Source: a virus
IMG/VR virus record: IMGVR_UViG_3300025128_000330
Location: 1-24,061 of that record
Reading direction: 5' to 3' (one strand)
DNA length: 24,061 nucleotides
In this document: in pieces, positions 1 to 23,945 of the stretch
Numbering within the stretch: the stretch's first letter is position 1
Layout: each line of letters begins with the position of its first letter
Program-made: the position numbers and the translations under genes
The notes under the pieces: model-generated
Database searches by the model: none
The model's input: only the letters and a program-made list of their open reading frames with translations
What the model was told of the DNA's origin: nothing

Positions 1-129
1 AAGATACTTCAGTATGTTGCCTTGCAGGTAATATTTAAAATTAGGTAGTAGTGCAGCTTCTATTGCATCTATGCATTCTATCCCACTCTGATTATAATGC
101 GGTGGGTTGTTTACCATATCTTTTTTCAT
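1..129 (-). CDS. DUF3310-family phage protein (3' end outside the window)
   Basis: The leftward frame starts at ATG 129-127 and stays open to the window edge, giving 43 codons. The peptide begins MKKDMVNNPPHYNQSG, continues IECIDAIEAA and ends QGNILKYL. The VNxPxHY start and the YLQGNILKYL segment are the hallmarks of DUF3310 (SaV-like), a small family common in phage nucleotide-metabolism and replication blocks. Its biochemical role is not settled. A TAGGA Shine-Dalgarno lies 7 nt before the ATG. It is the last visible gene of the leftward replication block, 9 nt after the stop of the 102-aa gene. The family call is firm; the function is unknown. Confidence 0.85.
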   Translation of the reverse strand, partial: MKKDMVNNPPHYNQSGIECIDAIEAALLPNFKYYLQGNILKYL

Positions 130-138
130 GTATGTGTC

Positions 139-856: not shown

Positions 857-886
857 AAGTAGTTAAACCAAATTTACTTTGCATAA

Positions 887-1762: not shown

Positions 1763-2634
1763 TAAGCAGCATCCTCATCAAGATTTATAAAGTCATCATC
1801 ACCATCAGACCCTGACGCACCACTTGATGTTGTATGTTTCTCCATAACCCATTTATTAATTTGAGCTATGTGATCGTGAAACTTACCAAAGAGTTCTACA
1901 GTATCATCGTTCATGGGGTAGGAAGTATCATCCGTAACAGATATATCTATATCATAGTACGTGACACCACCAGATACTTTCTTACTCTTCATTTGTACTA
2001 CTCTAGAGTTAGGAAGAACACGTTTTTTTGAAACCATATCTAAGAAAAATTTAGATAAAGTTTTACCAGAGGTCTTACCTGATAGTTCTATTTCTACAGG
2101 TAAAGTAACTTCTGTTTTTTTACCCTCTTCATTGACACCTTTCATAGTTGCTTCGCCATAAAAGATAATCATTAACCTACAAGATCGTAAAAACTCTTGC
2201 CTATCTTTGCTAAGAGACTTCCAATCTTTAATATATTCAAGGGGTCTACCACACTGGAAGTCACCATCGTCTGATGGGGCTTCATCGCGTGGCCCTTTAA
2301 CTAGTACAGAGTGTATGTATGATCCCTGTACTTTGTCACCATCTTTAGTGGTACGCTCCGCATACGCATCATATCTTTTATATCTGTAACGATGCTCATA
2401 ATATCTGAAAGATACTTCTTTTGCATACACTTTACCATCTTCTGTAGACACAGAAAAATAACCAGAAGGACATATGATATCTCCATTACTATCCTCAAGG
2501 TTTTCTCTCTCTATCCGTAGTCTAGCAAGAGAACTAGAAGAGGTAGACTCACCTCCAGTTTCACCAAAACTTTTTGCTAGTTCTGCCAATACAACAGAGT
2601 TTTCTTGCTTTACTATTTCTTGTGTTCCAGTCAT
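1762..2634 (-). CDS. Probable ssDNA-binding protein with acidic C-terminal tail
   Basis: The 290-aa protein has no motif that names it with certainty. It has a Ser-rich N-terminal linker (30-36), a striking aromatic/basic patch YYEHRYRYKRYDAY (78-91), a central beta-rich region, and an acidic tail DGDDDFINLDEDAA that includes a Phe. A disordered acidic tail with a hydrophobic residue is the hallmark of phage SSBs such as T7 gp2.5, where it binds polymerase and helicase. Position also fits: it lies between DNA polymerase and exonuclease. It has its own good sigma70 promoter inside the polymerase 3' end and an AAAGGA ribosome binding site 9 nt before the ATG, consistent with a need for high expression. 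The SSB call is inference; another replication accessory protein is possible. Confidence 0.55.
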   Translation of the reverse strand: MTGTQEIVKQENSVVLAELAKSFGETGGESTSSSSLARLRIERENLEDSNGDIICPSGYFSVSTEDGKVYAKEVSFRYYEHRYRYKRYDAYAERTTKDGDKVQGSYIHSVLVKGPRDEAPSDDGDFQCGRPLEYIKDWKSLSKDRQEFLRSCRLMIIFYGEATMKGVNEEGKKTEVTLPVEIELSGKTSGKTLSKFFLDMVSKKRVLPNSRVVQMKSKKVSGGVTYYDIDISVTDDTSYPMNDDTVELFGKFHDHIAQINKWVMEKHTTSSGASGSDGDDDFINLDEDAA

Positions 2635-2670
2635 TTTTTTTCCTTTCTTTGTCTCAAGACAAGACCTTCA

Positions 2671-2699
2671 GTTATACTTAAAACTACCTGTTTTGTCAA
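2671..2699 (-). promoter_or_regulatory. Sigma70-like promoter for the SSB-like gene
   Basis: Read on the minus strand, a perfect -35 TTGACA (2699-2694) is followed after exactly 17 bp by a -10 TATAAC (2676-2671). The predicted start near 2664 leaves about 30 nt of leader with an AAAGGA ribosome binding site before the ATG at 2634. The -35 box overlaps the last codons and stop of the DNA polymerase gene. This would let the SSB, exonuclease and endonuclease genes be transcribed independently of the long upstream operon. Confidence 0.75.
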
Positions 2700-4762
2700 G
2701 ACATATTTAGCCAATTGCTTCCTGTTTTAGTATCGATAGGTAGAGGTACATCCATGTTTATATTGTAGTATAAATGAATGCGGTTCTTAGTTGAACTAGG
2801 AGATAATATATTCTCTACAAGTTCTTCAACCCTATCTATTTCTTCATTCGGACAATCAAGTAACACACTGTCATGTACCGTATTTACTATTGTAGTTCTT
2901 AATTTATTTTTTTGTAGCTCCTCTCTTAATGCGACCAGACATAATGGAACAATGTCTGCCGTAGCTAGTGCCTGTACAGGATAGTTCTTTATCTTTGTAG
3001 CTCCTGTTGCACCCCCTGTCTTAGTTCTTTTAGCATGGGGAAATGCAAACTGCCTACCTGTTGGCAACGTAATACACTTATTCTTAATAGCCTCTGTCTG
3101 TAAACTTTGATGCCATTTTTTTATACCAGAGTATTTGTCAATGAAGTGTAAGTTGTATGCTTTCTCAGCAGTTGTGCCACTCATGGCCCCATACAGTGGG
3201 GCAAACGTCCTACCCTTGGCCTCTTGTCTAGACGTAGGCTGACCGTTGTTGGTTAAATAGTCTGCTGTATATGTGTGAACATCAAAGCCTGTTTCTATTT
3301 CTTGTATGGCTGTCTGATCGGCAGATAAGAATGCAGCTACCCTAAACTCCAGTTGTGCAAAGTCAAACTCAAACAGTGTGCCACCTTCGCCATATCTAGA
3401 CACGAATGCCTCTTTGACAGGAAACGTATTACCCCGTGGCATATTCTGCATATTAGGTGAGGAGGACGATAGCCTACCCGTAGCTGTACGACACTGATTA
3501 AAGTCAGCGTATAGCATATTACCTATCAGTCTTTTTTTGATGCCCTCTACAAACGCAGATAGGTATGTCTCAACAGCACCAAGACGCTCAACCTTTTCCA
3601 AGAACTCAATAGCATCTGAATGTTTGTCGGCGTTTAAAGATCTAAGTTGTTTAGCTAGAACCCGTAGTCTATTTTTATCTGTGCTAAATCCGTTAGCAGT
3701 TACCCATGTACTATCGGGTGGGAATATCTTTAGACCACCGACATCACCTGTTTCCATATATCTCATACCTGCACCACCGCACTCATGGCAGGTGTGCGCT
3801 CTTGAAAAGGGAGTACCATCTTTTTTTATCTTGTGTACTTTACCTGTTCCGTTACACGTTTTGCACACAGAAGCTACTGTTTTCATTACCTTTTTACAGC
3901 CACTGCGAACAAGCCTCCTAAATTTATCTGTGCTTATCCTGGGTCTAAACGGGCTGTCCAACTGATACATTATAGCGTGGCTCTTTTTATCCCTTGGAGT
4001 GTAAGAGAATATCATAGAGGATACCTGCTCTGGACTACTAAGATTAATAGGCGTATCACCCATGTAACTGTGTACTAATTCCTGTAGCCTACGTATCAGT
4101 TCCTTTTTTTCTATACGATAATTGAACTCAACGTAATCTAGCTTCGCCTCATCTATAGCCAACCCACCATACTCCATCTCAGACAGGCACATACACATTT
4201 TATTACTTAGATTTACTGTAGGCATAAGCGTAGTGTTCTCTAGATCTTTTATCTGAGCCAGATACAAATCTTTTGTAGCACGAATGTCTGCTCTGCCATA
4301 CTCCTCTACAATCTCCCAAGGCATGGCCTCATACCCTATCCCCTTATCCCAATACTCTTTGGTTATGTCAGATTTTTTATTGGCTAAGTCTCGCCTCTCA
4401 CAACAGGCACTAAGAGACATACTCATCCTCTCTCCTCTAGCCAGTATGTATTCACCTATCATAGTATCATATATGTCACCGTCATATGCAATGCCAACTG
4501 ACCATAGCCATTGTAGGTCATACTTTATATTGTGTCCTATAAGGATGTCAGCATTCTGTATTTTATGCTTGACCTCATTTCTTCTATTTGTTCCATGTGA
4601 AACATCACGATGATAAACAGCCACGTAATCTTCTTCGCCCGTGTCTACGTCTAGTATACCAATAGAAACTAAATCATTATTTTTATTGTGAGGCTTGTTA
4701 TCTATTATGTTTTCTTTTCTTGTGACACTATTTTCTATATCTACTACTAATCTTTTAGTCAT
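2696..4762 (-). CDS. Family A DNA polymerase with DnaJ-like zinc insert
   Basis: Numbered from an upstream ATG at 4783 (695 aa), the protein has a 3'-5' exonuclease with Exo I VVDIEN (Asp15, Glu17), Exo II GHNIKYD (Asp89) and Exo III YGRAD (Tyr162, Asp166). A zinc-type insert follows: CKTCNGTG (Cys307, 310) and CHECGGAG (Cys332, 335), like DnaJ CxxCxGxG repeats. The polymerase part has TATGRLSS (433-440), motif A DFAQLEFR (474-481), motif B RQEAKGRTFAPLYG (519-532) and motif C VHDS (636-639). The residue equal to E. coli Pol I 762 is Phe527. I prefer the start at 4762 (MTKRLVVD): AGG lies 4 nt upstream and the ATG overlaps the helicase stop (ATGACTAA), whereas 4783 has no ribosome binding site. 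Exonuclease and polymerase sites both look intact. The DnaJ-like insert points to HMO-2011-type marine phages. Confidence 0.97.
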   Translation of the reverse strand: MTKRLVVDIENSVTRKENIIDNKPHNKNNDLVSIGILDVDTGEEDYVAVYHRDVSHGTNRRNEVKHKIQNADILIGHNIKYDLQWLWSVGIAYDGDIYDTMIGEYILARGERMSMSLSACCERRDLANKKSDITKEYWDKGIGYEAMPWEIVEEYGRADIRATKDLYLAQIKDLENTTLMPTVNLSNKMCMCLSEMEYGGLAIDEAKLDYVEFNYRIEKKELIRRLQELVHSYMGDTPINLSSPEQVSSMIFSYTPRDKKSHAIMYQLDSPFRPRISTDKFRRLVRSGCKKVMKTVASVCKTCNGTGKVHKIKKDGTPFSRAHTCHECGGAGMRYMETGDVGGLKIFPPDSTWVTANGFSTDKNRLRVLAKQLRSLNADKHSDAIEFLEKVERLGAVETYLSAFVEGIKKRLIGNMLYADFNQCRTATGRLSSSSPNMQNMPRGNTFPVKEAFVSRYGEGGTLFEFDFAQLEFRVAAFLSADQTAIQEIETGFDVHTYTADYLTNNGQPTSRQEAKGRTFAPLYGAMSGTTAEKAYNLHFIDKYSGIKKWHQSLQTEAIKNKCITLPTGRQFAFPHAKRTKTGGATGATKIKNYPVQALATADIVPLCLVALREELQKNKLRTTIVNTVHDSVLLDCPNEEIDRVEELVENILSPSSTKNRIHLYYNINMDVPLPIDTKTGSNWLNMS

Positions 4763-5981
4763 CATACCTCGCAACTCTTCCATCTAACATTACATTTATT
4801 TGTCCATGCCAACCGCTAATTTTATTCTTAGCTATGTTGAATACTCTACGGGGATCACCCTCATCTGCTCCTTCTATCATAGCATACTTGCCAATCAGTA
4901 TCATAAGATCAGCTTCAGCTGCCTTACCTGTTCTACTGTTTTCCATCATAGATAGATTAAGATTTACCCTGCCCTCTGCATCTGCTGACAGTTGGGAGTA
5001 CCCAAAGATAGCACACTCATACCTTGTAGCTAGATCCCTAGTGCGTCTGTATATCTCACGTAGCTTTTCATGTTGAGCAGTTATGTGTTTGCTATCAGGC
5101 AATGTTACCTTGTCTAACATATCTATAACAAGTATGTCTGGCCTATGTTCTTTTAGGTGGGCTTCGATACCATCTATACCGTACGACTCCTCTATCCTAT
5201 CTATAAATAAATTATCCTTTTTCCATTCGCCATTGATTAGACTACCGCCACCCCCTAGTAGTTCTTCTTCTGATCTATTTGTAGCCGAACTTAGATACCT
5301 CAGTGCTACCCTGTTGGCAGGTTCCTCATTACAAAGTACGTGTACCTTTGCCCCTTGCTCTATCCAACCATACGGCCCCATCGCAAACGATGCATGGCTA
5401 GAGGTCTTTCCCGTTTCTGGTCTAGAGCCTATCACTATGAAGTGTCCTGCTGATACACCCGACACCCTCTCCGCAAGGGAAGACACATTAAATGCCCATT
5501 TAGTTTGCACGTTCATGGAGTCAATTAATTTTTGTGGATCTAAATCTATACCTGAGAAGGGGGATGCATCCGTAACAAAGCCAGAGGCATAGTCATCTAT
5601 TAGTTTAGATAAACTATCTAGGCTATTCTCATCACCCTCTGTCAGGGCATAGCCTATCTCAGATACTCGCCTACCAATTTCTATACGCCACAGATTATGC
5701 ATAACGTCCTTGGCTACATCGACAGATATATCCTCCGACTGTTTCATCTTGGCAAAGAGAAGTTTATAACTATCCTCTTGTGCTTTTGTTAGTGAGTTAT
5801 TGTTACTGAAGAATAAATTTTCTAATTCAGATAAGTTAATTGAATTATCATACGCATCCTGCGCGGATATAATTGTCTCTACAATTCGTTTAGGTTCTTT
5901 TTCAAAAGCAGTAACGGGTACGTTTCGTCCGATCTGCTCATATATTTCTTTGTTGCATAGTGCCTTGACTAGTTCCAACAT
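4755..5981 (-). CDS. Replicative DNA helicase, DnaB/T7 gp4-like RecA-fold
   Basis: The 408-aa product has a Walker A GSRPETGKT (185-193), the NEEP segment (218-221) that usually supplies the catalytic Glu, a Walker B ILVIDMLD (283-290) and a sensor-like GYSQLS (327-332). The C-terminal MENSRTGKAAEADLM has the arginine-finger and Lys pattern of DnaB-family hexamers. About 170 N-terminal residues are an alpha-helical non-zinc domain, so this is only the helicase half of what T7 makes as one primase-helicase. It should unwind the fork ahead of the polymerase. The start lies 44 nt inside the primase gene, with GAGG 9 nt upstream, and the stop overlaps the polymerase start. These overlaps imply coupled, roughly balanced synthesis of the three replisome proteins. 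Confidence 0.93.
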   Translation of the reverse strand: MLELVKALCNKEIYEQIGRNVPVTAFEKEPKRIVETIISAQDAYDNSINLSELENLFFSNNNSLTKAQEDSYKLLFAKMKQSEDISVDVAKDVMHNLWRIEIGRRVSEIGYALTEGDENSLDSLSKLIDDYASGFVTDASPFSGIDLDPQKLIDSMNVQTKWAFNVSSLAERVSGVSAGHFIVIGSRPETGKTSSHASFAMGPYGWIEQGAKVHVLCNEEPANRVALRYLSSATNRSEEELLGGGGSLINGEWKKDNLFIDRIEESYGIDGIEAHLKEHRPDILVIDMLDKVTLPDSKHITAQHEKLREIYRRTRDLATRYECAIFGYSQLSADAEGRVNLNLSMMENSRTGKAAEADLMILIGKYAMIEGADEGDPRRVFNIAKNKISGWHGQINVMLDGRVARYDD

Positions 5982-6741
5982 TTTGTATTTCCTCTATAGC
6001 CATATCTTTAATGTCTAGTTCTAATGCAACTACCTTACACTTGTCAACGCCAACGAATATTCGCCTAGACATTTGTATAGCTTTATCCGTTGCATCTTTA
6101 TCAAGAGCGATAGTTACATTCTTGTATGTATCCCATATCTTATTTAGATTGTTAGTAGATAACGATGTGCCTAGCAATGGCATAGCATCTGTATCTTTTA
6201 AATATGTTACTGCTTTCCATGCCGATATAATATCCTCTACTATAATTAGATTAGGTTTTGGTGGGGCATCAAACGGTACAACAATCGCACTGTCGATGTC
6301 ACTATATCTTTTCCATTTGGGCTTTCGCCAAACGTCCAACGCCCTACCAATAGCGTCCACATTTTCGCCATATTTCTGGATCATAAACGCTACCCGTCTT
6401 TCTAATGCATCATATAGAACGGGGATACCTATATTGTTTATACAATAAGTGTCTAGAAAATCGCTACAAATATTAGAATAACCCAGACGATTGACATCAG
6501 TGGTTCTGACATTTTGTGTTCCCTTCATTTTGTTTCGTTGTTGTTGATAATTAAATCTAATGTCTTCAAGTGACATACTTGAATTGTGTTTTACACCGCT
6601 ATAGTTACATGATGCAGAGTAGCAATTCCATTTAATGGTACTGCCTTCTCTACTTAAAGTAAAGGTATTGTGACGATGGCACTTGGGGCAACTACCCCTT
6701 TTGCTTTCGCCAGATCGTATGTCATCGAAGTCAATATTCAT
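5938..6741 (-). CDS. Stand-alone zinc-binding TOPRIM DNA primase
   Basis: The 267-aa protein is the primase half of a T7 gp4-like system encoded as its own gene. The N-terminus has a zinc-binding domain with Cys18, Cys21, Cys40 and Cys45 (CPKC and the CYSASC segment), used by such primases to recognise template. The TOPRIM domain shows LIIVEDIISAWKA with the conserved Glu169, and IALDKDATD with the paired aspartates Asp214 and Asp216. It should make RNA primers for the family A polymerase together with the helicase encoded next. The ATG overlaps the stop of the SleB-type gene (ATGA), with no clear ribosome binding site of its own, so translation is probably coupled. Confidence in primase is high. 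Confidence 0.9.
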   Translation of the reverse strand: MNIDFDDIRSGESKRGSCPKCHRHNTFTLSREGSTIKWNCYSASCNYSGVKHNSSMSLEDIRFNYQQQRNKMKGTQNVRTTDVNRLGYSNICSDFLDTYCINNIGIPVLYDALERRVAFMIQKYGENVDAIGRALDVWRKPKWKRYSDIDSAIVVPFDAPPKPNLIIVEDIISAWKAVTYLKDTDAMPLLGTSLSTNNLNKIWDTYKNVTIALDKDATDKAIQMSRRIFVGVDKCKVVALELDIKDMAIEEIQNVGTSQGTMQQRNI

Positions 6742-7172
6742 TTGTAAAATATATGATCCTCTATCTGAATAAGATACTGCCTATTCCATTGGGGATCTAC
6801 ATTAATAGAGTGATAAAATACTGCCCCGTCAAGTAAAGGAATAGACAGACCATACGTATAGTGAACCTCCTCTGCTATACGTATAGCTTTATTCCAGGAT
6901 CTTTTATCTTTTGGTACATCTGATAAGCCATCACAGTAGAATGAAAATTGGCAACGATGCTTCACTGGATAGTTTTGTTTCCAGCTATACGTAGGCCCCT
7001 CTTTTACCACACCGCACACAGTGTTAGGCCAACGGCTATCATGGGTACGGTTCAAGACCACTTGTGCGACAGCCATCTGACCTACGGTAGGTTGATCCCT
7101 AGCCTCAAAGTATATTGCTTGTGCCAGACAGGTTATGGATGCACCGAATGCTAGGACTGTAGCTTCAAGCAT
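6738..7172 (-). CDS. SleB/CwlJ-type cell-wall hydrolase (candidate endolysin)
   Basis: The 144-aa protein matches the Hydrolase_2 (SleB/CwlJ) family: AQAIYFEARDQPTVGQMAVA (17-36) with the catalytic-type Glu23, VVLNR, the CGVV segment near residue 53, CQFSFYCDG (74-82) and a late AVFYH. Family members cleave peptidoglycan glycan strands. In marine phages this type of enzyme commonly serves as endolysin. The N-terminus, MLEATVLAFGASITCLAQAI, is hydrophobic and could act as a signal or signal-arrest segment. The gene lies inside the replication block, overlapping MazG-like (TAATG) and primase (ATGA) genes, not next to a holin or tail gene. Lysis is therefore the likely role, but its transcription with early genes is odd. 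Confidence 0.87.
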   Translation of the reverse strand: MLEATVLAFGASITCLAQAIYFEARDQPTVGQMAVAQVVLNRTHDSRWPNTVCGVVKEGPTYSWKQNYPVKHRCQFSFYCDGLSDVPKDKRSWNKAIRIAEEVHYTYGLSIPLLDGAVFYHSINVDPQWNRQYLIQIEDHIFYK

Positions 7173-7497: not shown

Positions 7498-8103
7498 TTA
7501 CTCCTGATAAAGTTTTGGATAAGTGTCTTCAATAGTATATCGAAGCGCATTACGCAACGTCTTTTTATCTTTCTTTGATCCGATAAAATATACGTAGCGG
7601 TGTTTCGCTGATCTATTAATTCTGTTTTGTCTATCGCCTAGATGATGACGCGAGTGCCTACCATCTTTACCTGCTATATCTGTACGGGCTTTTGTTGTGC
7701 CAGTAAATAGGAAGTTACAGGCTTGATAAATAATACCAGCATGGTCTTGAGCAGTGTCAGCATAAGACACTACAACTCTAGGTTTAGGTAATAGTTTTAG
7801 GGATCGAGACACCAAGAACGATGCCTGATTAGGTAGGTTATCTTTTAAAACTAATCTGTTTAATTCAATTACGTTATGCTTATGTTCCTCACCGCATATG
7901 CCTTTACACAAAGAAGGCGATGCTGGTGTGCCATAAGATACCATGCCTACCATTTCATCATAATGATACAAGCCATACGCGAAGCTAATGCTAGGCATTC
8001 TTTTCGCATAATGGATATTGAGTATCCAGTTTTTTGTTGCAGAGTATGGGATCTGAACCACCTCATATTCGCTCTGCATTTGGTTTGACCAACCAACAAA
8101 CAT
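7498..8103 (-). CDS. Mom-family DNA adenine modification enzyme
   Basis: The 201-aa protein resembles the phage Mu Mom family (GNAT-like fold), which converts adenine in DNA to N6-carbamoylmethyladenine and blocks many restriction enzymes. Landmarks are NIHYAKRMPS (29-38), IELNRLVL (79-86), NQASFLVSRSLKLL (92-105), VVSYADTAQDHAGIIYQA (111-128), NFLFTG (130-135) and KHRYVYF (167-173). The His-Tyr after the N-terminal strand, the SYAD Asp116 and the GIIYQAxNFxxTG block are the conserved core as I know it. A very strong AGGAGG sits 4 nt before the ATG. There is no Com-like regulator nearby, unlike in Mu. The gene is in the early/replication block, so progeny DNA could be modified as it is made. 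Activity and modified base are inference. Confidence 0.8.
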   Translation of the reverse strand: MFVGWSNQMQSEYEVVQIPYSATKNWILNIHYAKRMPSISFAYGLYHYDEMVGMVSYGTPASPSLCKGICGEEHKHNVIELNRLVLKDNLPNQASFLVSRSLKLLPKPRVVVSYADTAQDHAGIIYQACNFLFTGTTKARTDIAGKDGRHSRHHLGDRQNRINRSAKHRYVYFIGSKKDKKTLRNALRYTIEDTYPKLYQE

Positions 8104-14102: not shown

Positions 14103-14502
14103 AAACACTTGGAGGCCCGTTGTAAGAAAGAGCCGACAAATACCGTTTGGATATAAGGCTGATCCAAATGACAATACTATACTGTTACCTATACAGGAAC
14201 AATTAGATGCATTACTTGAGGCTAAAGAATATTTAAAAACGTGTAGTTATAGAGAAGTTTCTAGATGGTTATCTGCTAAAACAGGAAGGACTATAACCTA
14301 TCAGGCACTACACAAATTAATAAAAAAAGAAAGAGATAGACAGAATGCAGTCCAATCGTACAGACATTATGCCTCCAAAGCGAAAGAGTACGCCGAAAAG
14401 GAAAAGAGCATCCAAGAAAAAATCCTCTACGCTTCAGTTGAACAAAGAGGCGATAGAATCGACACCGAATGGGCAAACGGACTCTTATCCTCCCAAGGTT
14501 GA
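14083..14502 (+). CDS. HTH protein overlapping the large terminase start
   Basis: The 139-aa protein starts MEQIATENTWRPVVRKSRQI and contains FGYKADPNDNTILLP (22-36), then a probable HTH in YREVSRWLSAKTGRTITYQA (56-75), and a charged helical tail (82-116). The FGY...L.P...S.REVSRWL..KTGR.I pattern resembles the recombinase-type HTH found next to large terminases in marine phages; function is unknown, but site recognition during packaging is plausible. A longer frame starts at 14068, yet the ATG at 14083 has GAGG 6 nt upstream. Its last 158 nt are also read in another frame as the N-terminus of the large terminase. Confidence 0.7.
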   Translation: MEQIATENTWRPVVRKSRQIPFGYKADPNDNTILLPIQEQLDALLEAKEYLKTCSYREVSRWLSAKTGRTITYQALHKLIKKERDRQNAVQSYRHYASKAKEYAEKEKSIQEKILYASVEQRGDRIDTEWANGLLSSQG

Positions 14503-15922
14503 AGAACTTGTAGAACAAGAATATGATCCTAATAGAATACAAATAAACAAAGGTCCACAAGAAAGTTTTATAAATGCACCAGAGCGAGAGGTATTGTATG
14601 GTGGTGCTGCAGGGGGAGGTAAAAGTTTTGCGCTATTAATAGACCCACTAAGATACTGTCAGTATCCTGATCATAGCGCACTTATACTTAGGAGAACAAA
14701 TGACGAACTTAGGGAACTTATTCACAAATCTACTGAACTATATCCGAAGTTTTATCGTGGGGCCAAATGGTCTGAAAGAAAAAGCCAATGGACTTTCCCT
14801 TCGGGTGCGAGAATTTGGCTCACGTACTTGGAACAGGATAAAGACGTATTGCGTTACCAAGGTCAGAGCTTTTCGTACGTGGGTTTCGATGAGCTTACGC
14901 AGTATCCTACATCGTTTCCGTGGGATTATCTCAGGTCGAGATTGAGGTCAACAAACCCTGAGATAGATGTATATATGAGAGCTACTACAAACCCAGGAGG
15001 GCCAGGACATTCATGGGTTAAAAAGATGTTTATAGATCCAGCAACCCCAAATAAATCGTTTTGGGCTAGAGATCCTGAAACAAAGGAGGTACTAAAGTAC
15101 CCGAAAGGTCACAATAGAGCAGGAGAGCCATTATTTCAAAGAAGATTTATACCTGCTAGTTTAAAAGATAATCCATATCTATATAACACAGGTGACTATG
15201 AAACAATGTTGTTGTCTCTGCCAGAGGTACAAAGAAAACAATTACTATACGGAAGTTGGGATATTGCAGAGGGTGCTGCGTTTACAGAGTTTGACAGAAA
15301 GACCCACGTAATAGAGCCGTATGATTTACCTAGTGGGTGGAGAAAATTTAGGGCGTGTGACTATGGTTATGGTTCTTATTCTGCTGTTCTTTGGTTTGCT
15401 GTTACGCCAGATGATACGTTGGTTGTGTACAGGGAGTTGTACGTAAGAAAAGTCCTAGCAGTAGAGTTGGCTAGAATAATATTGAATTTAGAAAGTCAAG
15501 ATGGTAAAATGGCGTATGGGGTTCTAGACTCTTCTTGTTGGCATAAAAGAGGGGATACAGGCCCTAGCCTAGCGGAGCAAATGATACTAGAAGGTTGTAA
15601 GTTTAGGCCATCAGATAGAAGTAGAGGTAGTAGAGTGAGTGGTAAGAACGAAGTACACAGACTACTACGTGTAGACGAAGATACTGATATGCCTGGGATA
15701 CAGATATTTAATACGTGTACAAATCTAATTGCACAATTACCTATCTTACCACTAGATAAAAGAAACCCAGAAGATATAGATACACATTCAGAAGACCACC
15801 TATACGATGCACTAAGATACGGAATACAATCTAGACCAGTGCCTAGAAACATATTTGATTTAGATCCTTCAACATCAGGTAAAGAGGCATTTAAACCTGC
15901 TGATGCAGTATTTGGATATTAA
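14345..15922 (+). CDS. Terminase large subunit
   Basis: The 525-aa protein is a full large terminase. The ATPase has Walker A GGAAGGGKS (86-94), Walker B FSYVGFDEL (176-184; Asp182, Glu183) and coupling motif ATTNPGG (213-219). The RNase H-like nuclease has ACDYGYG (337-343; Asp339), LDSSC (394-398; Asp395) and HSEDHLYDALRYG (481-493; Asp484). It translocates DNA into the prohead and cuts it at the end of packaging. The first 55 residues are a very basic, Lys/Arg/Pro-rich extension (for example PPKRKSTPKRKRASKKKSS) coded inside the HTH gene. ATG codons exist at 14345 and 14369, none with a good ribosome binding site, and no later ATG precedes the ATPase domain, so the long overlap seems real. 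Confidence 0.95.
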   Translation: MQSNRTDIMPPKRKSTPKRKRASKKKSSTLQLNKEAIESTPNGQTDSYPPKVEELVEQEYDPNRIQINKGPQESFINAPEREVLYGGAAGGGKSFALLIDPLRYCQYPDHSALILRRTNDELRELIHKSTELYPKFYRGAKWSERKSQWTFPSGARIWLTYLEQDKDVLRYQGQSFSYVGFDELTQYPTSFPWDYLRSRLRSTNPEIDVYMRATTNPGGPGHSWVKKMFIDPATPNKSFWARDPETKEVLKYPKGHNRAGEPLFQRRFIPASLKDNPYLYNTGDYETMLLSLPEVQRKQLLYGSWDIAEGAAFTEFDRKTHVIEPYDLPSGWRKFRACDYGYGSYSAVLWFAVTPDDTLVVYRELYVRKVLAVELARIILNLESQDGKMAYGVLDSSCWHKRGDTGPSLAEQMILEGCKFRPSDRSRGSRVSGKNEVHRLLRVDEDTDMPGIQIFNTCTNLIAQLPILPLDKRNPEDIDTHSEDHLYDALRYGIQSRPVPRNIFDLDPSTSGKEAFKPADAVFGY

Positions 15923-15935
15923 GAGAAGGTAAAGT

Positions 15936-18077
15936 ATGGCTGACGAAACAGACTTTTTAGAAGATAGCACCAGTTCTTATTTAGAAGATGGTAGCCAAGA
16001 AAATGAAGATGCTTCTGGTATAACTGACCACATATACAAATTATTTTCTAGGGCAGAAGATGCAAAGTATCAGGAAGAGTCAAACTGGATACGTGCATAC
16101 AAAAACTATAGGGGCATATACTCTCCTGATGTACAGTTTACTGAGGCAGAAAAGTCTCGCGTATTTATAAAAGTAACAAAGACAAAAGTGTTAGCAGCGT
16201 ATAGTCAATTAGTAGATGTACTACTTGCTAACAATGAGTTTCCTCTATCTATTGAGCCAACAACTTTACCAGAGGGCGTAGCAGAAACTGTAAACTTTGA
16301 TCCTAACGAACCTAAAGATGTAGATGTTGGCGAGATGCCAAAAGATCTATACGGGTACGAGGGTGATGGTAAAGTTTTACCTGCTGGTGCTACAGAACTA
16401 AATGACCTGACAGAAAAGTTAGGACCACTAAAAGATATATTAAAAGACGTAGATATTCTTAAAGAGGGTTTTGGCATAACGCAATCTGCTGTCAATTTTC
16501 ATCCTGCAATGGTAGCTGCAAAGATGATGGAGAAGCAGATAAAAGATCAGCTAGAAGAATCTGACGCTAGTATGCATCTAAGAAACACTGCGTTTGAATG
16601 TGCTTTGTTTGGCACTGGTGTACTCAAAGGGCCGTTTGCTACAACTAAAGAATATGCAAACTGGAATGATGATGGTGAGTATGATCCAACAATTAAGACA
16701 GTTCCTAAAGTATCGTATGTTTCTGCTTGGAACTTCTACCCTGATCCTGATGCGTCTAGCATGGAAGAATGTGACTACGTAATAGAGCGTCACAAACTTA
16801 CTAAAACACAATTAAGAAATCTACGAACTAGACCTTTCTTTAGAGAAGAAGCAATTGCAGAGGCAATAGATATAGGGCAGAACTACAACATTAAGTGGTG
16901 GGAGTCTAGCCTACTCGATTCTCAAGACGAAGAAAGTTCCCGTGGATACGACACATACAGATACGAAGCCCTAGAATATTGGGGTGTAATGGACAGGGAG
17001 CTTGTAGAAGAGTCTGGCATAGAAATACCAGAAGAATACGAAGACGTAAATGAACTACAGGTAAACGTGTGGATATGTAATGGCGAAGTGCTACGGTTTG
17101 TGGTCAACCCATTCCTACCAAAGCGCATACCATACTGCGCTGTTCCGTATGAAGTAAACCCATATGCTTTCTTTGGCATTGGCGTTGGTGAAAACATGGA
17201 CGATACACAGACACTAATGAATGGTTTCATGCGTATGGCAGTAGATAACGCAGTCCTGTCAGGTAATTTACTAATAGAAGTTGATGAGACAAACCTAACT
17301 CCAGGACAGGATCTTACAGTATACCCAGGAAAAGTATTTAGAAGACAGGGAGGTGCGCCTGGACAGGCTATATTTGGCACTAAGTTTCCTAATGTAAGTA
17401 GTGAAAATATGCAGTTGTTTGACAAGGCTAGAGTGTTAGCAGATGAGTCAACGGGCATACCATCATTTTCACATGGGCAAACAGGTGTTACGGGTGTAGG
17501 TAGGACGGCAGCTGGTATCTCTATGTTAATGGGGGCCGCAGCAGGTTCTATAAAAACAGTTGTTAAAAACTTTGATGACTATATGCTACGTCCATTAGGT
17601 CAGGCAATGTTTGCATTCAATATGCAGTTTAACTACAACAAAGATATAAAAGGTGATCTAGAAGTTAAGGCTAGAGGACTAGAAAGTTTAATGCAAAACG
17701 AGGTACGATCACAACGTCTTATGTCTTTCTTGCAGATAACTAGTAATCCTGTACTTGCACCGTTTGCTAAGTTCCCTTACATAATACGAGAGATAGCTAA
17801 GTCGATGATGCTAGATCCTAACAAAGTTACTAATACGCCAGAAGAAATGTTGAGGCAAACATACTTAATGCAACAACAACAGCAAGGGCAACCACAACAG
17901 GGCGAGATGGACATGACAGGTGCAGGTAATGGTAACATAGGTGTAGGAGGAGTACCAGTACCAGGAGAACCACAGTTCTCAGGTAACCCACAACAAGCAC
18001 CACAACAAGCACCTCCACAACAACAGATGCAAGAACCACCACCTAACGCAGGATTACCTCCAGGATTATTACAATAA
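15936..18077 (+). CDS. Portal protein
   Basis: The 713-aa protein has the size, place and sequence of a podovirus-type portal. Visible portal-like parts are WIRAYKNYRGIYSP (51-64), VFIKVTKTKVLAAYSQLVD, YVSAWNFYPDPDASSMEECD, and IPYCAVPYEVNPYAFFGIGV followed by DDTQTLMNGFMRMAVDNAVL, with GVGRTAAGISMLMGAAAGSI later. Twelve copies form the ring through which DNA enters and leaves. GAGAAGG lies 6 nt before the ATG, 13 nt after the terminase stop. The last 70 residues, from about residue 645, are a Gln/Pro/Gly-rich low-complexity tail that starts with a run of Q. Acidic N-terminus and disordered C-terminus are probably not part of the ring. The final TAA shares a base with the next ATG. Confidence 0.92.
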   Translation: MADETDFLEDSTSSYLEDGSQENEDASGITDHIYKLFSRAEDAKYQEESNWIRAYKNYRGIYSPDVQFTEAEKSRVFIKVTKTKVLAAYSQLVDVLLANNEFPLSIEPTTLPEGVAETVNFDPNEPKDVDVGEMPKDLYGYEGDGKVLPAGATELNDLTEKLGPLKDILKDVDILKEGFGITQSAVNFHPAMVAAKMMEKQIKDQLEESDASMHLRNTAFECALFGTGVLKGPFATTKEYANWNDDGEYDPTIKTVPKVSYVSAWNFYPDPDASSMEECDYVIERHKLTKTQLRNLRTRPFFREEAIAEAIDIGQNYNIKWWESSLLDSQDEESSRGYDTYRYEALEYWGVMDRELVEESGIEIPEEYEDVNELQVNVWICNGEVLRFVVNPFLPKRIPYCAVPYEVNPYAFFGIGVGENMDDTQTLMNGFMRMAVDNAVLSGNLLIEVDETNLTPGQDLTVYPGKVFRRQGGAPGQAIFGTKFPNVSSENMQLFDKARVLADESTGIPSFSHGQTGVTGVGRTAAGISMLMGAAAGSIKTVVKNFDDYMLRPLGQAMFAFNMQFNYNKDIKGDLEVKARGLESLMQNEVRSQRLMSFLQITSNPVLAPFAKFPYIIREIAKSMMLDPNKVTNTPEEMLRQTYLMQQQQQGQPQQGEMDMTGAGNGNIGVGGVPVPGEPQFSGNPQQAPQQAPPQQQMQEPPPNAGLPPGLLQ

Positions 18078-18286: not shown

Positions 18287-21200
18287 ATGGCTAAAGAACC
18301 ACGCCGTAATTTAGAATCAGCTTTAGAACGTCTTAGAAGAGAAGACCGACTAAGAAGATCTTCAGAGGGATCTCCATTATATAATATAGCACAAACTTTA
18401 ACAGAGCTAAATACGGAAGAAGACAAAGTACCGCAAGTTGTTTCGTTAGAGGCTACCCTTAACTCTATTTACATGGTTCCTACATCTATAGCTTTTGGAT
18501 TACTTCACGGTTTAGGAAAGATAGGAGGAAACTTTGCGTCACTTGTAGGTGCATTAGATCAGGAGTATGTAGATACTCTTAGCAAAAGTGTATCAGGTAA
18601 GTTCTTAAAATTTGCTAGTGAACAGGCCCCAGAAGAAGATGCAGGGGGCAGACGTTTGATGGAAACTATAGGAAAATTAGGAACGGCAGGTGGTGAAATG
18701 GTTAGTTTTGCAGTTCCTGCTATAGGTTTTGCAAGAATATTCCAAGTAAGTTTAGGCTTTAGGCCCATAGTAGCAACAGCAACAGCAGATGCGCTAGTTG
18801 GTTTTGGCGGTATGTCACCAGACGAAGAAAACTTTTTTAATTTTGTAGAAGAAATATCTAAAGAAAATAACATAGAGGCACTAGAAACTTTAGGTAGAAT
18901 ACTTGCTACTAATCCTAAGAATACAGAATTTGAAAACCGTGTTAATAACGGAATAGAAACATTAATAGCTTTGGGTCTTTCAGAGAGTGCAGTTAGAGGT
19001 GTTATAAAACTAAACACCATGCGTAAAATGGCATCTGCAAAAGTTAAAGGAGAAGATACAGCAGATAAATATGAAGTCGTAAAAGAAAAATTATCACCAG
19101 AAGTTTCAGAAAATTTAGACAAAGCTGTTGAGCCAAAACCCACAGACGAAGAGCCTATAGGAACTACTGTAGTAGAAGCAGAAAAACCTCCTGTAGATAA
19201 ACAGACAGAAGAAGTACTTACAGATGCAGAGAAAAAACTTGCAGTGCAAGAGAAGTTTAATTTACCTACATCTTCAAATATAGAAAAAGAAACAGTAGAT
19301 AAGTTAATGAAATCTATAGAAGATGGTTTACCTTTAGCACAAGCAGATGATTTAGATTTTGCTACTATAGTAAATAAACAAGAAGCAAAGATAGATGAGC
19401 CAGATCCTGAATTTAAAAAAGAATTTGATAAAAAAGCAAAAGAAATACAACAACAAATAGACGATGCTAAGATAAAACTAGAAGAGGATAAGATAGAATC
19501 TACAGAAAAAACAACTACACCTAGCGCACCAGATATCCCAACATTTAAAGTAGTAGGTAAAAAACCAGGTGGTTCTACAGAAGGAGCCATGATAGAGGAT
19601 GTTTCCACAGGAATAAAATATATAGCAAAATATCCTAAGAACATAGAACAAGCTGCGCAAGAAGCAATAACATCTCGCGCCTATCAAATAGCAGGTATTA
19701 AAACTCCAGAAGTAAAAGTGATGTTTGGTAAAATAGATGGAGAAGAGAGGACGTTTTTAGTATCTGAGTTTATCGAAGATCTTAAACCATACAATGCAAA
19801 TGAGGTGTCATCAGAAGATATAGGAAGATTACACGCTACCGCTACAGTAATGAAAGATTGGGATACTGTTGGGTTAGAAAAAGACAATATAACTTTGTCT
19901 GTAAATCCTGGAGGTAGGACCATTCTAGTGCAAAATGATGCTGGTGGTTCTATGGAATTTAGAGCGCAAGGCGGTCCAAAAGATTTTGAAAAAGACCCTA
20001 TGCCTCAGTGGGCTTCGTTTACTAGTGGTGATAACAAACAGGCTACAGAAGTATTTCGTGACGCATACAAAAAAGACCCTATTGGATACATGAGGGGTGT
20101 AGAAAATGCATTAGTTAATTTAAAATCAAACGATATGGCTCTACAAGAAATTGCAGAAGAATCATATTTAAATATAGCTACAGCATTAGAAAATCCTAGT
20201 GATTTTGCGACCATAAATAAAGCAGATAAACTAGTAGACACTATAGTAGAAAGAATAAATCTTTTAAGTGAGGGATTAGAAGAGCCTATACTTATTAATA
20301 AATACATACAGACTAAAGAAACTAAAGATACTGTAATAGATCCTAATAGTGACGATGTTACTAAAGTAGTTTTTGACCCTGTTAAAAATAAACCAAATAA
20401 AAAAATACAAAGAATTATAGAGAAACAAAAAAATGTACCTGAAGTAATGGCAGAAAAAATGGGATTTGATCCTACAGGAGGTGCTACTAGATTTGAACAA
20501 GACTTTGGAACTCCACAAAGAGGAGTTGTAACTGTCACAGACATTCCACAAAAAGATTTTCCAGAACAAAAATTATTATCAGACAAAGATAAAATAATGC
20601 CACCGCTTAGTGAAGAAGTTAAGGCTGTTTTACCTGATACTAAAACACAAAGTATACGCAATAAAAATAGAATAGCAGAAGATTATTTTAATACACTTCC
20701 ACTAAAAGACAGAATAAAATTAATAGAAGAAGATGATCTATTTAAAGAGTTATTTGAAGATACAAAAACATTAGCAGAAAAAAGCAAAGTATATAATGAA
20801 ATATTACAGTTTCCATATGTTAAATCTAAACCTGCTGAGATATCAAGTATAAGAGAAAAAATATTGTCTCTTAGAATGGCAAAAAAACTAGGTAAACCTA
20901 CAAATGTAGTTTCAGGAAATACACCAGCAGGTCAATTTGACAGGGAAACTGTTGGTGAAATAAATGAAAAACTAAAAGAAAGTAATGTAGATAAACAAAT
21001 ATCTCAGATGCTTGATCCTCGCGGAACTAGAAAGTATGTTTTAAAAAACTTTTTAGGTGTTAATAAAGGTGATCCATCGGTTGTTGGACCGTCTTATCAA
21101 AAAGATTTAGATGCGTATGGAAGAGGGGCAGGAGGTTTGTATTCTGGTCCTATGTACAATAATGCATTTGTTTTTGATGATGGAGTTGCTTCAAAAAGCC

Positions 21201-22639
21201 ACGTACTGCTAACAAAAAGACAATTAAAACAAGCAATAGTAACAGCAGCCCAACCAAACTTTCCCCTTCCCCCAGGAAGTATACCTACTCAATTTTTAAC
21301 TCTTGGAAAATCTATAGATATACACGTACCTAATAGTGTAGAAAGTATAGTACTTCCTCAAAATCCTGATTTTAAAGAATTATTAAAAACATATGAGAAT
21401 GTTCAAAAATCTCTTTCAGCAAATTATGGTAAAACTCCTAATGACAAACTTCATGTAGTTCAAGGTTATACCTCTTTAATATTTCATAATGCCTATGGTA
21501 GACAGGTTATGAAAAAAATAGAAGCCGTAATGTTTAATCCTAGTATGAATATAAATAGTACAAATATTTACACTGATAATAGTTTAAAAACAGTTGGAAA
21601 TATTAGTGGTGATTTAGAAATAAAAAAAGGCACTAGGTATAAAAAATTTACGTATGGCCCTAATAATCCTATAGGTAAACAACAGTATAAAGATCACTTT
21701 GGTGAGGAATGGTATAAAGAAACTTTTTTTGATTCAGGAAAAATATCAGGTTGGACAACATCAGAAATCAATGGGTTTGGTGTTAATAAATTTTTAACTA
21801 GATTAAATGAAGGTATAACAGATCCTAAAGATGCATTTTTAAGTTTTCCAGTTGCAGATGAGGTTACAACAACCATAGGTCATGGAATAAGTAGTATTAA
21901 TAAATTAAAAAGTAGTAGATTGCCTTTTGCTACAGTTACACTTCCACCAATACAAGCAAAAGAAGTAGTTAAAGAAAGTAGTAAAAAAGTTAAAGATATA
22001 TTTAGAGTAGGCGTACCTGATGAGTTTATTACTACAATTAAACCTATATACTACAGTGAAAAAAATCCTAATAAAATAGACAAGGCGCGATCTGCTTTGT
22101 TTGAAAAGTTAGATTTAAATGTACTTGCATCTTATGTTCCTGCTCCCTTACTACTAGCACAACTTGCACCACCGAAAGAAAAAGATCAAGAAATAGAAAT
22201 AGAACCTTTACAAAAGTTTGTACCGTTAGATCAGGGAGAGTCTATACGAGAAGAACTGCCTCAAACAGAATTAGATACTACGCCCATAACTAGAGAAGCA
22301 ACAGAAAAGTCTACGTCTTCTACATTAGAAGATGGAACAGTTGTATTGCACCCAACAATATTTAAAGACAAAGAAACAAATATACCGCAAGAATTAGGTG
22401 GGCAAGATGCATTTGTTGCAGCGATGGACTTTGAGGCACGAAACCCTAGTCTTGAATTTCCACGATTTAATACTGTAGAGGAAGCAGACCAGTACTCAAG
22501 AGATAGAAGTGAGGCAGGTGGTGCAAGTGATATGCCCTTGTATCTAGACACAACCGAAGATGAGTTAGATATTGACAGTCAAATGTCAGATTTAAACCTT
22601 GGAGAACAATCAAATGATGAACTACGACAACGAGTCTGA
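18287..22639 (+). CDS. 1450-aa virion-type protein with kinase-like domain
   Basis: This is the largest gene. An N-terminal 250 residues hold Gly-rich, mildly hydrophobic helices (VPTSIAFGLLHGLGKIGG, 64-81; FAVPAIGFARIF, 141-152), then about 170 charged, disordered residues (250-415). Residues 424-610 look like a HipA/phosphoinositide-kinase-type domain: PGGSTEGAMIEDVSTG (427-442), KYIAKYP (444-450, Lys448), ITSRAYQIAGIKTPE (461-475), LVSEFIEDL, DWDTVGLEKDNI (524-535, Asp526, Asn534) and LVQNDAGGSMEFRAQG (547-562, Asp551). The rest is unrecognised, with a Pro/Leu segment PAPLLLAQLAPP near 1285 and a C-terminal block GGQDAFVAAMDFEARNPS near 1371. The size and place after portal suggest an internal or ejected virion protein. 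The kinase-like residues are present, but substrate and activity are unknown. Confidence 0.75.
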   Translation: MAKEPRRNLESALERLRREDRLRRSSEGSPLYNIAQTLTELNTEEDKVPQVVSLEATLNSIYMVPTSIAFGLLHGLGKIGGNFASLVGALDQEYVDTLSKSVSGKFLKFASEQAPEEDAGGRRLMETIGKLGTAGGEMVSFAVPAIGFARIFQVSLGFRPIVATATADALVGFGGMSPDEENFFNFVEEISKENNIEALETLGRILATNPKNTEFENRVNNGIETLIALGLSESAVRGVIKLNTMRKMASAKVKGEDTADKYEVVKEKLSPEVSENLDKAVEPKPTDEEPIGTTVVEAEKPPVDKQTEEVLTDAEKKLAVQEKFNLPTSSNIEKETVDKLMKSIEDGLPLAQADDLDFATIVNKQEAKIDEPDPEFKKEFDKKAKEIQQQIDDAKIKLEEDKIESTEKTTTPSAPDIPTFKVVGKKPGGSTEGAMIEDVSTGIKYIAKYPKNIEQAAQEAITSRAYQIAGIKTPEVKVMFGKIDGEERTFLVSEFIEDLKPYNANEVSSEDIGRLHATATVMKDWDTVGLEKDNITLSVNPGGRTILVQNDAGGSMEFRAQGGPKDFEKDPMPQWASFTSGDNKQATEVFRDAYKKDPIGYMRGVENALVNLKSNDMALQEIAEESYLNIATALENPSDFATINKADKLVDTIVERINLLSEGLEEPILINKYIQTKETKDTVIDPNSDDVTKVVFDPVKNKPNKKIQRIIEKQKNVPEVMAEKMGFDPTGGATRFEQDFGTPQRGVVTVTDIPQKDFPEQKLLSDKDKIMPPLSEEVKAVLPDTKTQSIRNKNRIAEDYFNTLPLKDRIKLIEEDDLFKELFEDTKTLAEKSKVYNEILQFPYVKSKPAEISSIREKILSLRMAKKLGKPTNVVSGNTPAGQFDRETVGEINEKLKESNVDKQISQMLDPRGTRKYVLKNFLGVNKGDPSVVGPSYQKDLDAYGRGAGGLYSGPMYNNAFVFDDGVASKSHVLLTKRQLKQAIVTAAQPNFPLPPGSIPTQFLTLGKSIDIHVPNSVESIVLPQNPDFKELLKTYENVQKSLSANYGKTPNDKLHVVQGYTSLIFHNAYGRQVMKKIEAVMFNPSMNINSTNIYTDNSLKTVGNISGDLEIKKGTRYKKFTYGPNNPIGKQQYKDHFGEEWYKETFFDSGKISGWTTSEINGFGVNKFLTRLNEGITDPKDAFLSFPVADEVTTTIGHGISSINKLKSSRLPFATVTLPPIQAKEVVKESSKKVKDIFRVGVPDEFITTIKPIYYSEKNPNKIDKARSALFEKLDLNVLASYVPAPLLLAQLAPPKEKDQEIEIEPLQKFVPLDQGESIREELPQTELDTTPITREATEKSTSSTLEDGTVVLHPTIFKDKETNIPQELGGQDAFVAAMDFEARNPSLEFPRFNTVEEADQYSRDRSEAGGASDMPLYLDTTEDELDIDSQMSDLNLGEQSNDELRQRV

Positions 22640-23945
22640 GGAGAACGAAGCACCATTTGGCTCTCTTGAAGAAGAGGTAGCTGACGATATACCTGTGATG
22701 CTATCAGAGGGTGAGTATGTAATACCTGCTGATGTTGTGCGATACTGGGGTCTAAAGCATTTAGAAGAAATGCGTATGATGGCAAAGTGTGGTCTTATGT
22801 CTATGCAACAGGACGGTAGATTACACATGGTAGATGAAGATGGCGAACCTGTAGAAACAGATGAGCCAGAAGCTCCACAAATAGAAGTTGTAGAAATAGA
22901 TATACAGGCAATGCAAGATGATGCGTCAGAAGAAGAGGATGATGATGATGAAGACATGGACAAACAAATGGAGTTGTTTGAAGATAATGTAATAGAGGTA
23001 GATTTTGATGGTAAGAATAAAGATATATTAAAGTTAGGTGATGGTGGTGATGTAGGTAACGATGAAAATAATGATGAGAATAATGATGAGAACGATGACG
23101 ATGATAATGATGAAGCAGATGACGAAACAGGAATGGGTACAGCTAGTATGCAAGATATAACTGACATTCAAGGGAAAGATGCTGGTAGGAGTATGTCAGG
23201 TCCAGAAGGAAATGTACCTGATGATGTAGCAGGTAATCCTACAGGATTTGCTGGCCCAGATGCTTCTTTAAAATCAGGTTTGGATGTTTCAGGTTTAACA
23301 GCAGTTGAAGTTGCTATTGCAGATCTAGCAGAAAAACAAGGTGCAGATAATCCTATTGGAACAGCAAGAGCAGCAACATCTATGGGATATACAGGAGTAA
23401 ATGAATTTAGTACTGATACCCCTGTAGATACACAAGTTGATCAGGCAATAGATGCAAGAGTAGCAAACAATCCTACTGCTGCACAATTAGGTATAAATGC
23501 ACAATTAGAAAAAGGCTTTCAAACAGCTAACCCAACAACGGTAGCAGCAACAAACGCACTAGCAGGATTGCTTAGTAAAACAAGTCCAGCTATTGCAGCT
23601 ACTTTAGCAGTAGGTAATATTGTAAATGCAGCTACAGGAAGAGAAGGATTAGGTGTAGGAGAGGTATTTGGATTAGATATATCAGGTACAATAGGAGAGC
23701 AACTATCTGGAATTGCACAAGATGTAGTTGATTTTTCTGAAACAGTTCCTGGTAATATAGAAGATACAATAGATGCAGGTGTAGAGGCAGGAAAAGAAGC
23801 TGGAAGTACAGATGAAGACTCAAGAAAAAAACAAAATACCTTGCCTGATCTAAATACGCTACTAAATAAAACAATGAAAATAGATGGTATTAATGAAGAA
23901 ATTCCTGTTAGGAATAGTTTAATGTCACAACCAATAACTACATGA
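22614..23945 (+). CDS. Acidic marine-phage structural-type protein (443 aa)
   Basis: The N-terminal domain contains GSLEEEVADDIPVMLSEGEY followed by VIPADVVRYWGLKHLEEMR, a 'DDIP.MLS.GEYVIPADVVR' pattern I know from marine-phage virion-region proteins of unknown function. A long Asp/Glu/Asn run follows (roughly residues 105-175), coded by GAT/GAA-rich near-repeats at 22920-23120, and then an Ala/Gly-rich region with LAGLLSKTSPAIAATLAVGN. A TTG start at 22599 is possible, but GGAG at 22601-22604 lies 9 nt before ATG 22614, which I prefer. It overlaps the 1450-aa gene by 26 nt. The acidic, disordered make-up would fit a scaffold, DNA-mimic or ejected protein. Confidence 0.72.
   Translation: MMNYDNESEENEAPFGSLEEEVADDIPVMLSEGEYVIPADVVRYWGLKHLEEMRMMAKCGLMSMQQDGRLHMVDEDGEPVETDEPEAPQIEVVEIDIQAMQDDASEEEDDDDEDMDKQMELFEDNVIEVDFDGKNKDILKLGDGGDVGNDENNDENNDENDDDDNDEADDETGMGTASMQDITDIQGKDAGRSMSGPEGNVPDDVAGNPTGFAGPDASLKSGLDVSGLTAVEVAIADLAEKQGADNPIGTARAATSMGYTGVNEFSTDTPVDTQVDQAIDARVANNPTAAQLGINAQLEKGFQTANPTTVAATNALAGLLSKTSPAIAATLAVGNIVNAATGREGLGVGEVFGLDISGTIGEQLSGIAQDVVDFSETVPGNIEDTIDAGVEAGKEAGSTDEDSRKKQNTLPDLNTLLNKTMKIDGINEEIPVRNSLMSQPITT

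What the first reader, a model, noticed from the sequence alone, without database searches (positions are those of the whole stretch)
19556..20117. Kinase-like domain buried in a 1450-aa virion-type protein
Residues 424-610 have the ordered elements of a HipA/PI-kinase-like fold: Gly-rich loop, Lys in YIAKYP, catalytic-type DWDTVGLEKDN, and NDAGG as a metal-binding DxG equivalent. All key polar residues appear present. A kinase carried in the virion and delivered with the DNA could act on host proteins at once, before any phage gene is expressed.
Basis: partly seen in the sequence, partly recalled or inferred. Interest (0 to 1): 0.72.

Follow-up and report, generated by a model that had tools for sequence, protein, structure and literature searches.

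The report
HipA-like kinase in phage head cargo
A marine bacterial virus carries, inside a giant protein encoded among its head genes, an intact protein-kinase-type domain from a large family that no database yet labels as a kinase; it is probably packed in the virus particle and injected to modify the host cell at the very start of infection.

Summary
Residues 411-662 of the 1450-aa ORF (window 19517-20272) form a complete HipA/CotH-clade kinase domain. AlphaFold2 gives pLDDT 93 and pTM 0.89. The best structural matches are CtkA (Z 16.3), CotH (15.6), PI4KII-alpha (13.1) and HipA (12.0). Across 108 non-redundant relatives, K448, E459, D526 and N534 never vary and D551 varies once. The named test residues K448, D526 and D551 are exactly the catalytic ones. 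The domain has the lowest dN/dS of the protein in all window-relative comparisons.

The family is widespread: at least 252 IMG/VR stretches, 26 loci in bacterial genomes and 19 phage records. No Pfam, PHROG or NCBIfam model covers it, and no phage record calls it a kinase. It is repeatedly fused or adjacent to MuF head proteins, ADP-ribosyltransferases and NUDIX domains, next to portal and terminase genes. A relative in phage fHe-Yen8-01 is annotated 'phage particle associated'. The window is an HMO-2011-type marine podovirus, with the ORF next to the portal.

The fold and an intact active site are shown. Presence in this virion, phosphotransfer and a host protein target are inferred. It is a new variant of a known kind: polyvalent cargo with a HipA-like kinase.

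The parts
18287..22639 (+). 1450-aa ORF, proposed polyvalent virion-cargo protein
   Evidence: full-length relatives L008-L011, with about 38-49% identity in the tblastn blocks that together span most of it
19517..20272 (+). HipA/CotH-clade kinase domain, residues 411-662
   Evidence: AF2 pLDDT 93.2, pTM 0.89; VIA-align Z 16.3 CtkA, 15.6 CotH, 12.0 HipA; HMM limits
19571..19573 (+). G429, invariant Gly of the Gly-rich loop between beta1 and beta2
   Evidence: 108/108 relatives
19628..19630 (+). K448, beta3 ATP-binding lysine (YIAKYP)
   Evidence: 108/108; in beta3 of the model
19661..19663 (+). E459, alpha-C glutamate
   Evidence: 108/108; in helix 49-64 of the model; aligns with the Glu of HipA proteins
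19862..19864 (+). D526, predicted catalytic aspartate (NWD motif)
   Evidence: 108/108
19886..19888 (+). N534, predicted catalytic-loop metal-binding asparagine
   Evidence: 108/108
19937..19945 (+). D551-A-G553, DxG metal-binding motif
   Evidence: D 107/108, G 108/108
19961..19981 (+). R559-AQG-xx-K565, family-specific signature after DxG; function unknown
   Evidence: G562 and K565 108/108, R/A/Q at least 101/108
18287..19486 (+). N-terminal region (residues 1-400), conserved in marine relatives, function unknown, candidate virion-association part
   Evidence: alignment A5; no Pfam or significant PHROG match
20963..22186 (+). C-terminal conserved region (residues 893-1300), fold unknown
   Evidence: alignments A4/A7; AF2 failed, pLDDT 39
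14345..15922 (+). terminase large subunit
   Evidence: PHROG 979, E 4.6e-67
15936..18077 (+). portal / head-tail adaptor, immediately upstream
   Evidence: PHROG 332 and 1216; 66% identical to Roseobacter phage CRP-345 portal
22599..23945 (+). next ORF with the DDIPVMLSEGEYVIPADVV domain, overlapping the cargo ORF end; in CRP-3, CRP-9 and CRP-212 this domain is fused in cis to the large ORF of the same slot

Best explanation
Residues 411-662 are a catalytically competent kinase domain of the HipA/CotH/CtkA clade. Shown: sequence family, predicted fold, full active site and purifying selection. It is one module of a polyvalent cargo protein made from the late head/packaging gene block (position shown). 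The protein is packaged in the head and enters the host with the DNA (inferred from relatives). There it uses ATP-Mg to phosphorylate one or more host proteins at the start of infection (inferred), as one of a set of injected host-modifying enzymes together with ADP-ribosyltransferases and NUDIX hydrolases in related phages. The likely purpose is host takeover or disabling of defence. A HipA-like choice of translation or transcription proteins as targets is the leading guess only.
For: Fold: AF2 pLDDT 93.2, pTM 0.89; Foldseek CotH E 2.6e-7 and CtkA 1.2e-5; VIA-align Z 16.3 CtkA, 15.6 CotH, 13.1 PI4KII-alpha, 12.0 HipA, 11.9 Fam20C, 11.7 bacterial kinase complex 7vkb, 11.4 HipT, 11.1 actin-fragmin kinase. 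Sequence: 29 of 66 members match Pfam HipA_C, best 7.8e-6; profile hits CtkA at E 0.002; hhalign to HipA 88%, E 3e-6, above all shuffles. Active site K/E/D/N/D complete in 107 of 108 relatives; lowest dN/dS of the protein against all four relatives. Virion cargo: next to the portal here and in Gordonia phage Sixama, portal gp72 - kinase gp73 - ADP-ribosyltransferase gp75; Pfam tally in 39 relatives: ADPrib_exo_Tox 16, NUDIX 15, Phage_Mu_F 6; MuF-kinase-ART in one chain in L030 and L042; neighbours portal, head protease, terminase, NUDIX; fHe-Yen8-01 relative and its downstream NUDIX-domain protein annotated 'particle associated'.
Against: No experiment on any member. The D-to-N spacing is 8 residues and there is no HRD-type His, so the catalytic loop is unusual. 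Particle association is known only as an annotation on one relative that shares the kinase domain alone (about 31% identity), not the rest of the protein. The window protein itself has no recognisable MuF, ART or NUDIX. Isolated HMO-2011-type phages examined carry other cargo, not this kinase.
Confidence: 0.6

Rival explanations
1. The kinase is active but works late, in the cell that makes the virions: for example it confers immunity to superinfection or regulates assembly by phosphorylating capsid proteins, and is not injected. This is the reading published for the HipA-family kinase between portal and MCP in 'Gratiaviridae'.
For: Same gene position, late module; Benler et al. 2021 propose a late, immunity-like role (PMC8008677); some relatives are stand-alone 230-260 aa proteins.
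Against: Fusion to MuF and minor capsid domains and to ART modules, and the particle-associated annotation of one relative, favour packaging.
Confidence: 0.2
2. The kinase fold transfers something other than phosphate to protein: AMPylation (SelO-like), glutamylation (SidJ-like), or phosphorylation of a lipid, nucleotide or other small molecule.
For: The nearest folds include the lipid kinase PI4KII-alpha. The RAQGxxK signature after DxG is family-specific and nearly invariant. Neighbouring enzymes handle ADP-ribose and nucleotides (ART, NUDIX). Kinase folds with altered chemistry are known (own knowledge).
Against: The K/E/D/N/D set is complete and in the usual order; the closest matches CtkA, CotH and HipA are protein kinases.
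Confidence: 0.15
3. A pseudokinase or purely structural module of the head protein.
For: Large virion proteins can contain inert modules (inference); one relative, L026 4890-6524, has the D551 position changed to N.
Against: 107 of 108 relatives keep every catalytic residue, and the domain is the most constrained part of the protein against all relatives; domain architectures swap around it.
Confidence: 0.04
4. Chance resemblance: no kinase fold.
For: The window sequence alone gives only HipA_C E 0.07 and no PDB hit.
Confidence: 0.01

Closest known systems
HipA-family kinase between portal and MCP in 'Gratiaviridae' gut phages (Benler et al. 2021, PMC8008677)
   Same: Distant HipA-type kinase encoded between portal and capsid genes of tailed phages
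   Different: Reported in five phages of one family next to an AAA ATPase and glycosyltransferase, interpreted as a late immunity factor. Here it is a module of giant cargo proteins with MuF/ART/NUDIX partners in relatives. Whether the sequences belong to one family was not tested.
Kinase domains of phage polyvalent proteins (Iyer et al. 2017, PMC5512222)
   Same: Kinase as one module of a multi-domain injected protein; same proposed use
   Different: Described as Ser/Thr/Tyr-kinase superfamily domains with catalytic His and Asp that lost the whole C-terminal subdomain, mainly in Verrucomicrobia/Chlamydia and Bacteroidetes phages. The present family has NWD instead of an HxD motif, keeps a helical C-lobe and matches HipA/CotH.
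HipA / HipT toxins (Pfam HipA_C)
   Same: Fold, beta3 Lys - alpha-C Glu block with significant profile match
   Different: Below Pfam cut-off, longer Asp-Asn spacing, no HipB antitoxin seen, embedded in virion-type proteins
CotH kinase (B. cereus, 5jda) and CtkA (H. pylori, 3akj)
   Same: Best structural matches over the whole domain; CtkA also found by sequence profile
   Different: 10-12% identity in the structural alignments; no CotH Pfam match in the window
T4 Alt and T7 gp0.7
   Same: Phage enzymes that modify host proteins early; Alt is packaged and injected (PMC5512222)
   Different: Alt is an ADP-ribosyltransferase; gp0.7 is an early-expressed kinase, not virion cargo; no sequence relation tested

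Membership tests
HipA/CotH/CtkA-clade kinases (fold) | Bilobal kinase fold, beta1-beta2-beta3-alphaC-beta4-beta5, helical C-lobe | tested here: met
   model; Z 10-16 to CtkA, CotH, HipA, HipT, Fam20C, AFK
HipA/CotH/CtkA-clade kinases (fold) | Catalytic Lys, Glu, Asp, Asn, DxG in order | tested here: met
   K448 E459 D526 N534 D551
HipA/CotH/CtkA-clade kinases (fold) | ATP-dependent phosphotransfer | not testable with these tools
   no biochemistry
HipA_C (Pfam PF07804) | Score over the curated cut-off 30.5 bits | tested here: not met
   window 13.2 bits; best member E 7.8e-6; related to, not a member of, the Pfam family as drawn
HipA_C (Pfam PF07804) | Profile-level homology | tested here: met
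   hhalign 88%, score 51.3 vs shuffled maximum 18.6, over the beta3-alphaC-beta4 block
HipBA toxin-antitoxin | Adjacent HipB-type HTH antitoxin | tested here: not met
   neighbours are portal and a morphogenesis-slot ORF
CotH (Pfam PF08757) | Match to the family model | tested here: not met
   no match at E <= 10; hhalign score 27.9 vs shuffled maximum 20.4, weak
Polyvalent-protein kinase of Iyer et al. 2017 | Catalytic His-Asp pair, loss of C-terminal subdomain | tested here: not met
   position -2 of D526 is N in 100, D in 7 and S in 1 of 108 relatives, never His; helical C-lobe present; paper text
Phage polyvalent / head-cargo proteins | Several unrelated modules in one polypeptide encoded with head genes | tested here: met
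   1450 aa with distinct conserved blocks next to the portal; relatives with MuF, ART, NUDIX, WGR, TopoIB
Phage polyvalent / head-cargo proteins | Protein present in the virion and injected | tested here: inconclusive
   only a relative is annotated particle-associated
HMO-2011-type podoviruses (genome) | TerL-portal-coat core genes of the group | tested here: met
   portal 66% to CRP-345 and 65% to HMO-2011
'Gratiaviridae' HipA kinase | Sequence relationship to the five reported proteins | not tested
   sequences not identified here

The most novel reading that the evidence does not exclude
This is a large, so far unnamed family of virion-delivered HipA-like kinases. With ART and NUDIX partners it forms a standard injected host-modification kit of tailed phages of many hosts, including an abundant marine group, acting before any phage gene is expressed.
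Probability: 0.5. Interest if true: 0.8.

Novelty: new variant of a known kind. Interest (0 to 1): 0.64.

Why it matters
Phage protein kinases are rarely described: a 2021 paper counted two characterised ones, both not virion-borne (PMC8008677). Here one family spans at least 252 viral stretches and phages of Proteobacteria and Actinobacteria, is called a kinase in none of the 19 phage records found, and keeps its active site almost without exception. If it is packaged, it would explain why a kinase sits among late genes: it is made late and used early, in the next cell. It gives a directly testable case in isolates with ordinary laboratory hosts, such as Gordonia phage Sixama, and suggests that phosphorylation joins ADP-ribosylation as a general injected weapon.

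Tried and rejected
Single-sequence searches of the window domain against Pfam, PHROGs and PDB were nearly empty, so a family profile was needed; a first profile of 11 sequences also found nothing in PDB. AF2 of the C-terminal region 893-1300 failed with six sequences (pLDDT 39) and was not searched; a viral scan for that region found only the same four contigs. I looked for the kinase in seven HMO-2011-type isolates: none has it; the same slot holds other large ORFs. Virion proteomics of HMO-2011 (PNAS 2013) is not in the library, and a text search found no other paper that was pursued for it. No paper on fHe-Yen8-01 is held; the meaning of 'phage particle associated protein' as a proteomics term was taken from another Yersinia phage paper (PMC8309999). 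Membership in the Iyer 2017 kinase group was considered and rejected on the His-Asp and C-lobe features. The NCBIfam scan gave only two single-member chance-level hits.

Full report
Observation. The ORF at 18287-22639 (+) encodes 1450 residues, and 19556-20117 is residues 424-610. The quoted motifs are present, with K448, D526 and D551 exactly as numbered. Alone, the window sequence is nearly silent: Pfam HipA_C E 0.07, no significant PHROG or PDB match. That silence is a depth problem. tblastn over annotated phages finds seven 86-95 kb phages that share only a stretch within residues 402-567, at 28-32% identity; in the six that were fetched it lies in proteins of 1177-2253 aa. Two viral scans gave four near relatives and then at least 252 confirmed stretches, of which 80 were kept. 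A genome scan gave 26 loci from Actinobacteria, Alphaproteobacteria, Chloroflexi, Cyanobacteria, Planctomycetes and others.

Fold and active site. With a 66-sequence alignment, AlphaFold2 models residues 405-665 at pLDDT 93.2, pTM 0.89, with the kinase order beta1-beta2-beta3(K448)-alphaC(E459)-beta4-beta5-alphaE-loop(D526, N534)-beta-beta-D551xG and a helical C-lobe. Foldseek ranks CotH (2.6e-7) and CtkA first. VIA-align gives Z 16.3 CtkA, 15.6 CotH, 13.1 PI4KII-alpha, 12.0 S. oneidensis HipA, 11.9 Fam20C, 11.4 HipT and 11.1 actin-fragmin kinase. By sequence, 29 of 66 members match HipA_C (best 7.8e-6) and six HipA_2; the profile finds CtkA at E 0.002; hhalign to 26 genuine HipA proteins fetched for the purpose gives 88%, E 3e-6, score 51.3, against a maximum of 18.6 for 20 column-shuffled profiles and about 15 for unrelated alignments; CotH scores only 27.9 against 20.4. 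In 108 non-redundant relatives K448, E459, D526 and N534 are invariant and D551 changes once. Between the window and its four long relatives the kinase region has dN/dS 0.35-0.37, lower than the rest of the protein (0.43-0.81); dS is high in these pairs, so only the ranking should be used.

Context. TerL and portal precede the ORF; the portal is 66% identical to Roseobacter phage CRP-345 and 65% to Puniceispirillum phage HMO-2011, so this is an HMO-2011-type marine podovirus, a group described as dominant and broadly distributed (PMC9038755). In isolates of the group the same slot after the portal holds large ORFs of different content (about 760-1395 aa), several carrying the DDIPxxLSEGEYVxPADVV domain that in the window lies in the next, overlapping ORF at 22599-23945. 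The slot thus looks like a place for exchangeable cargo. None of the seven isolates read has the kinase.

Partners. In 39 large proteins (the window's and 38 viral relatives) Pfam finds ADPrib_exo_Tox in 16, NUDIX in 15, Phage_Mu_F in 6, WGR in 4, and once each topoisomerase IB, phage minor capsid protein 2 and HINT; 24 relatives from bacterial genomes show ADPrib_exo_Tox 8, NUDIX 3, Phage_min_cap2 2. Examples: MuF-kinase-ART in one chain (L030, L042), NUDIX-kinase-TopoIB (L075). Neighbouring genes include portal, head morphogenesis, head protease, terminase and NUDIX. In Gordonia phage Sixama the order is portal gp72, kinase protein gp73, ADP-ribosyltransferase gp75.

Mechanism. Best supported: an active kinase module of a polyvalent head-cargo protein, injected and used on host proteins at once, with ADP-ribosyltransferase and NUDIX partners in related phages. 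Fold, residues, selection and gene position are shown; packaging of this protein, activity and target are inferred. Rivals are late action in the producing cell, chemistry other than protein phosphorylation, and a pseudokinase; see the separate entries.

Comparison with the known. Polyvalent proteins with kinases were described in 2017, but that kinase group has a catalytic His-Asp pair and lost the C-lobe (PMC5512222), features not met here. A HipA-family kinase between portal and MCP was reported in five 'Gratiaviridae' phages and read as a late immunity factor because its late-gene position argued against early action (PMC8008677). Packaging would remove that objection. None of the 19 phage records found calls the domain a kinase, and Pfam, PHROGs and NCBIfam have no model that covers it. 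I therefore rate it a new variant of a known kind.

Noticed in passing
L047, L048, L066, L067, L073, L085, L091: Two successive genes in the same viral locus each carry a copy of this kinase domain (for example L047 ORFs 3-3548 and 4095-5642), so some phages encode a pair.
   Followed up: no
L026:4890-6524: One of two kinase-domain ORFs in this contig has the DxG aspartate changed to Asn, the only active-site change among 108 relatives; a possible pseudokinase paired with an intact copy (L026:124-2862).
   Followed up: no
L019, L020, L021, L025, L027, L029, L031, L034, L038: Stand-alone versions of the domain (232-258 aa) in viral contigs, which fix the domain borders.
   Followed up: partly
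window 7498-8103 (-): By eye the 201-aa ORF resembles Mom-like DNA-modification (acyltransferase) proteins; not searched.
   Followed up: no
window 6738-7172 (-): By eye a SleB/hydrolase_2-like cell-wall hydrolase (FEARDQPTVGQMAVAQVVLNR) in the replication-side gene cluster; a similar stretch opens the CRP-3 slot protein gp36.
   Followed up: no
slot after the portal in L092, L093, L094, L095, L096, L097, L098: The gene after the portal varies strongly in length and content among HMO-2011-type isolates, with a shared DDIPxxLSEGEYVxPADVV domain in most: a likely exchangeable cargo slot.
   Followed up: partly
L114, L115, L119, L123, L126: Several Gastranaerophilales metagenome bins carry large proteins with this kinase, twice in one bin (L114 and L126); prophages or cellular effectors, not decided.
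   Followed up: no
window 20963-22186: Conserved C-terminal region of the same protein (residues 893-1300) with no family match and no confident fold; also present, more distantly, in L016.
   Followed up: partly
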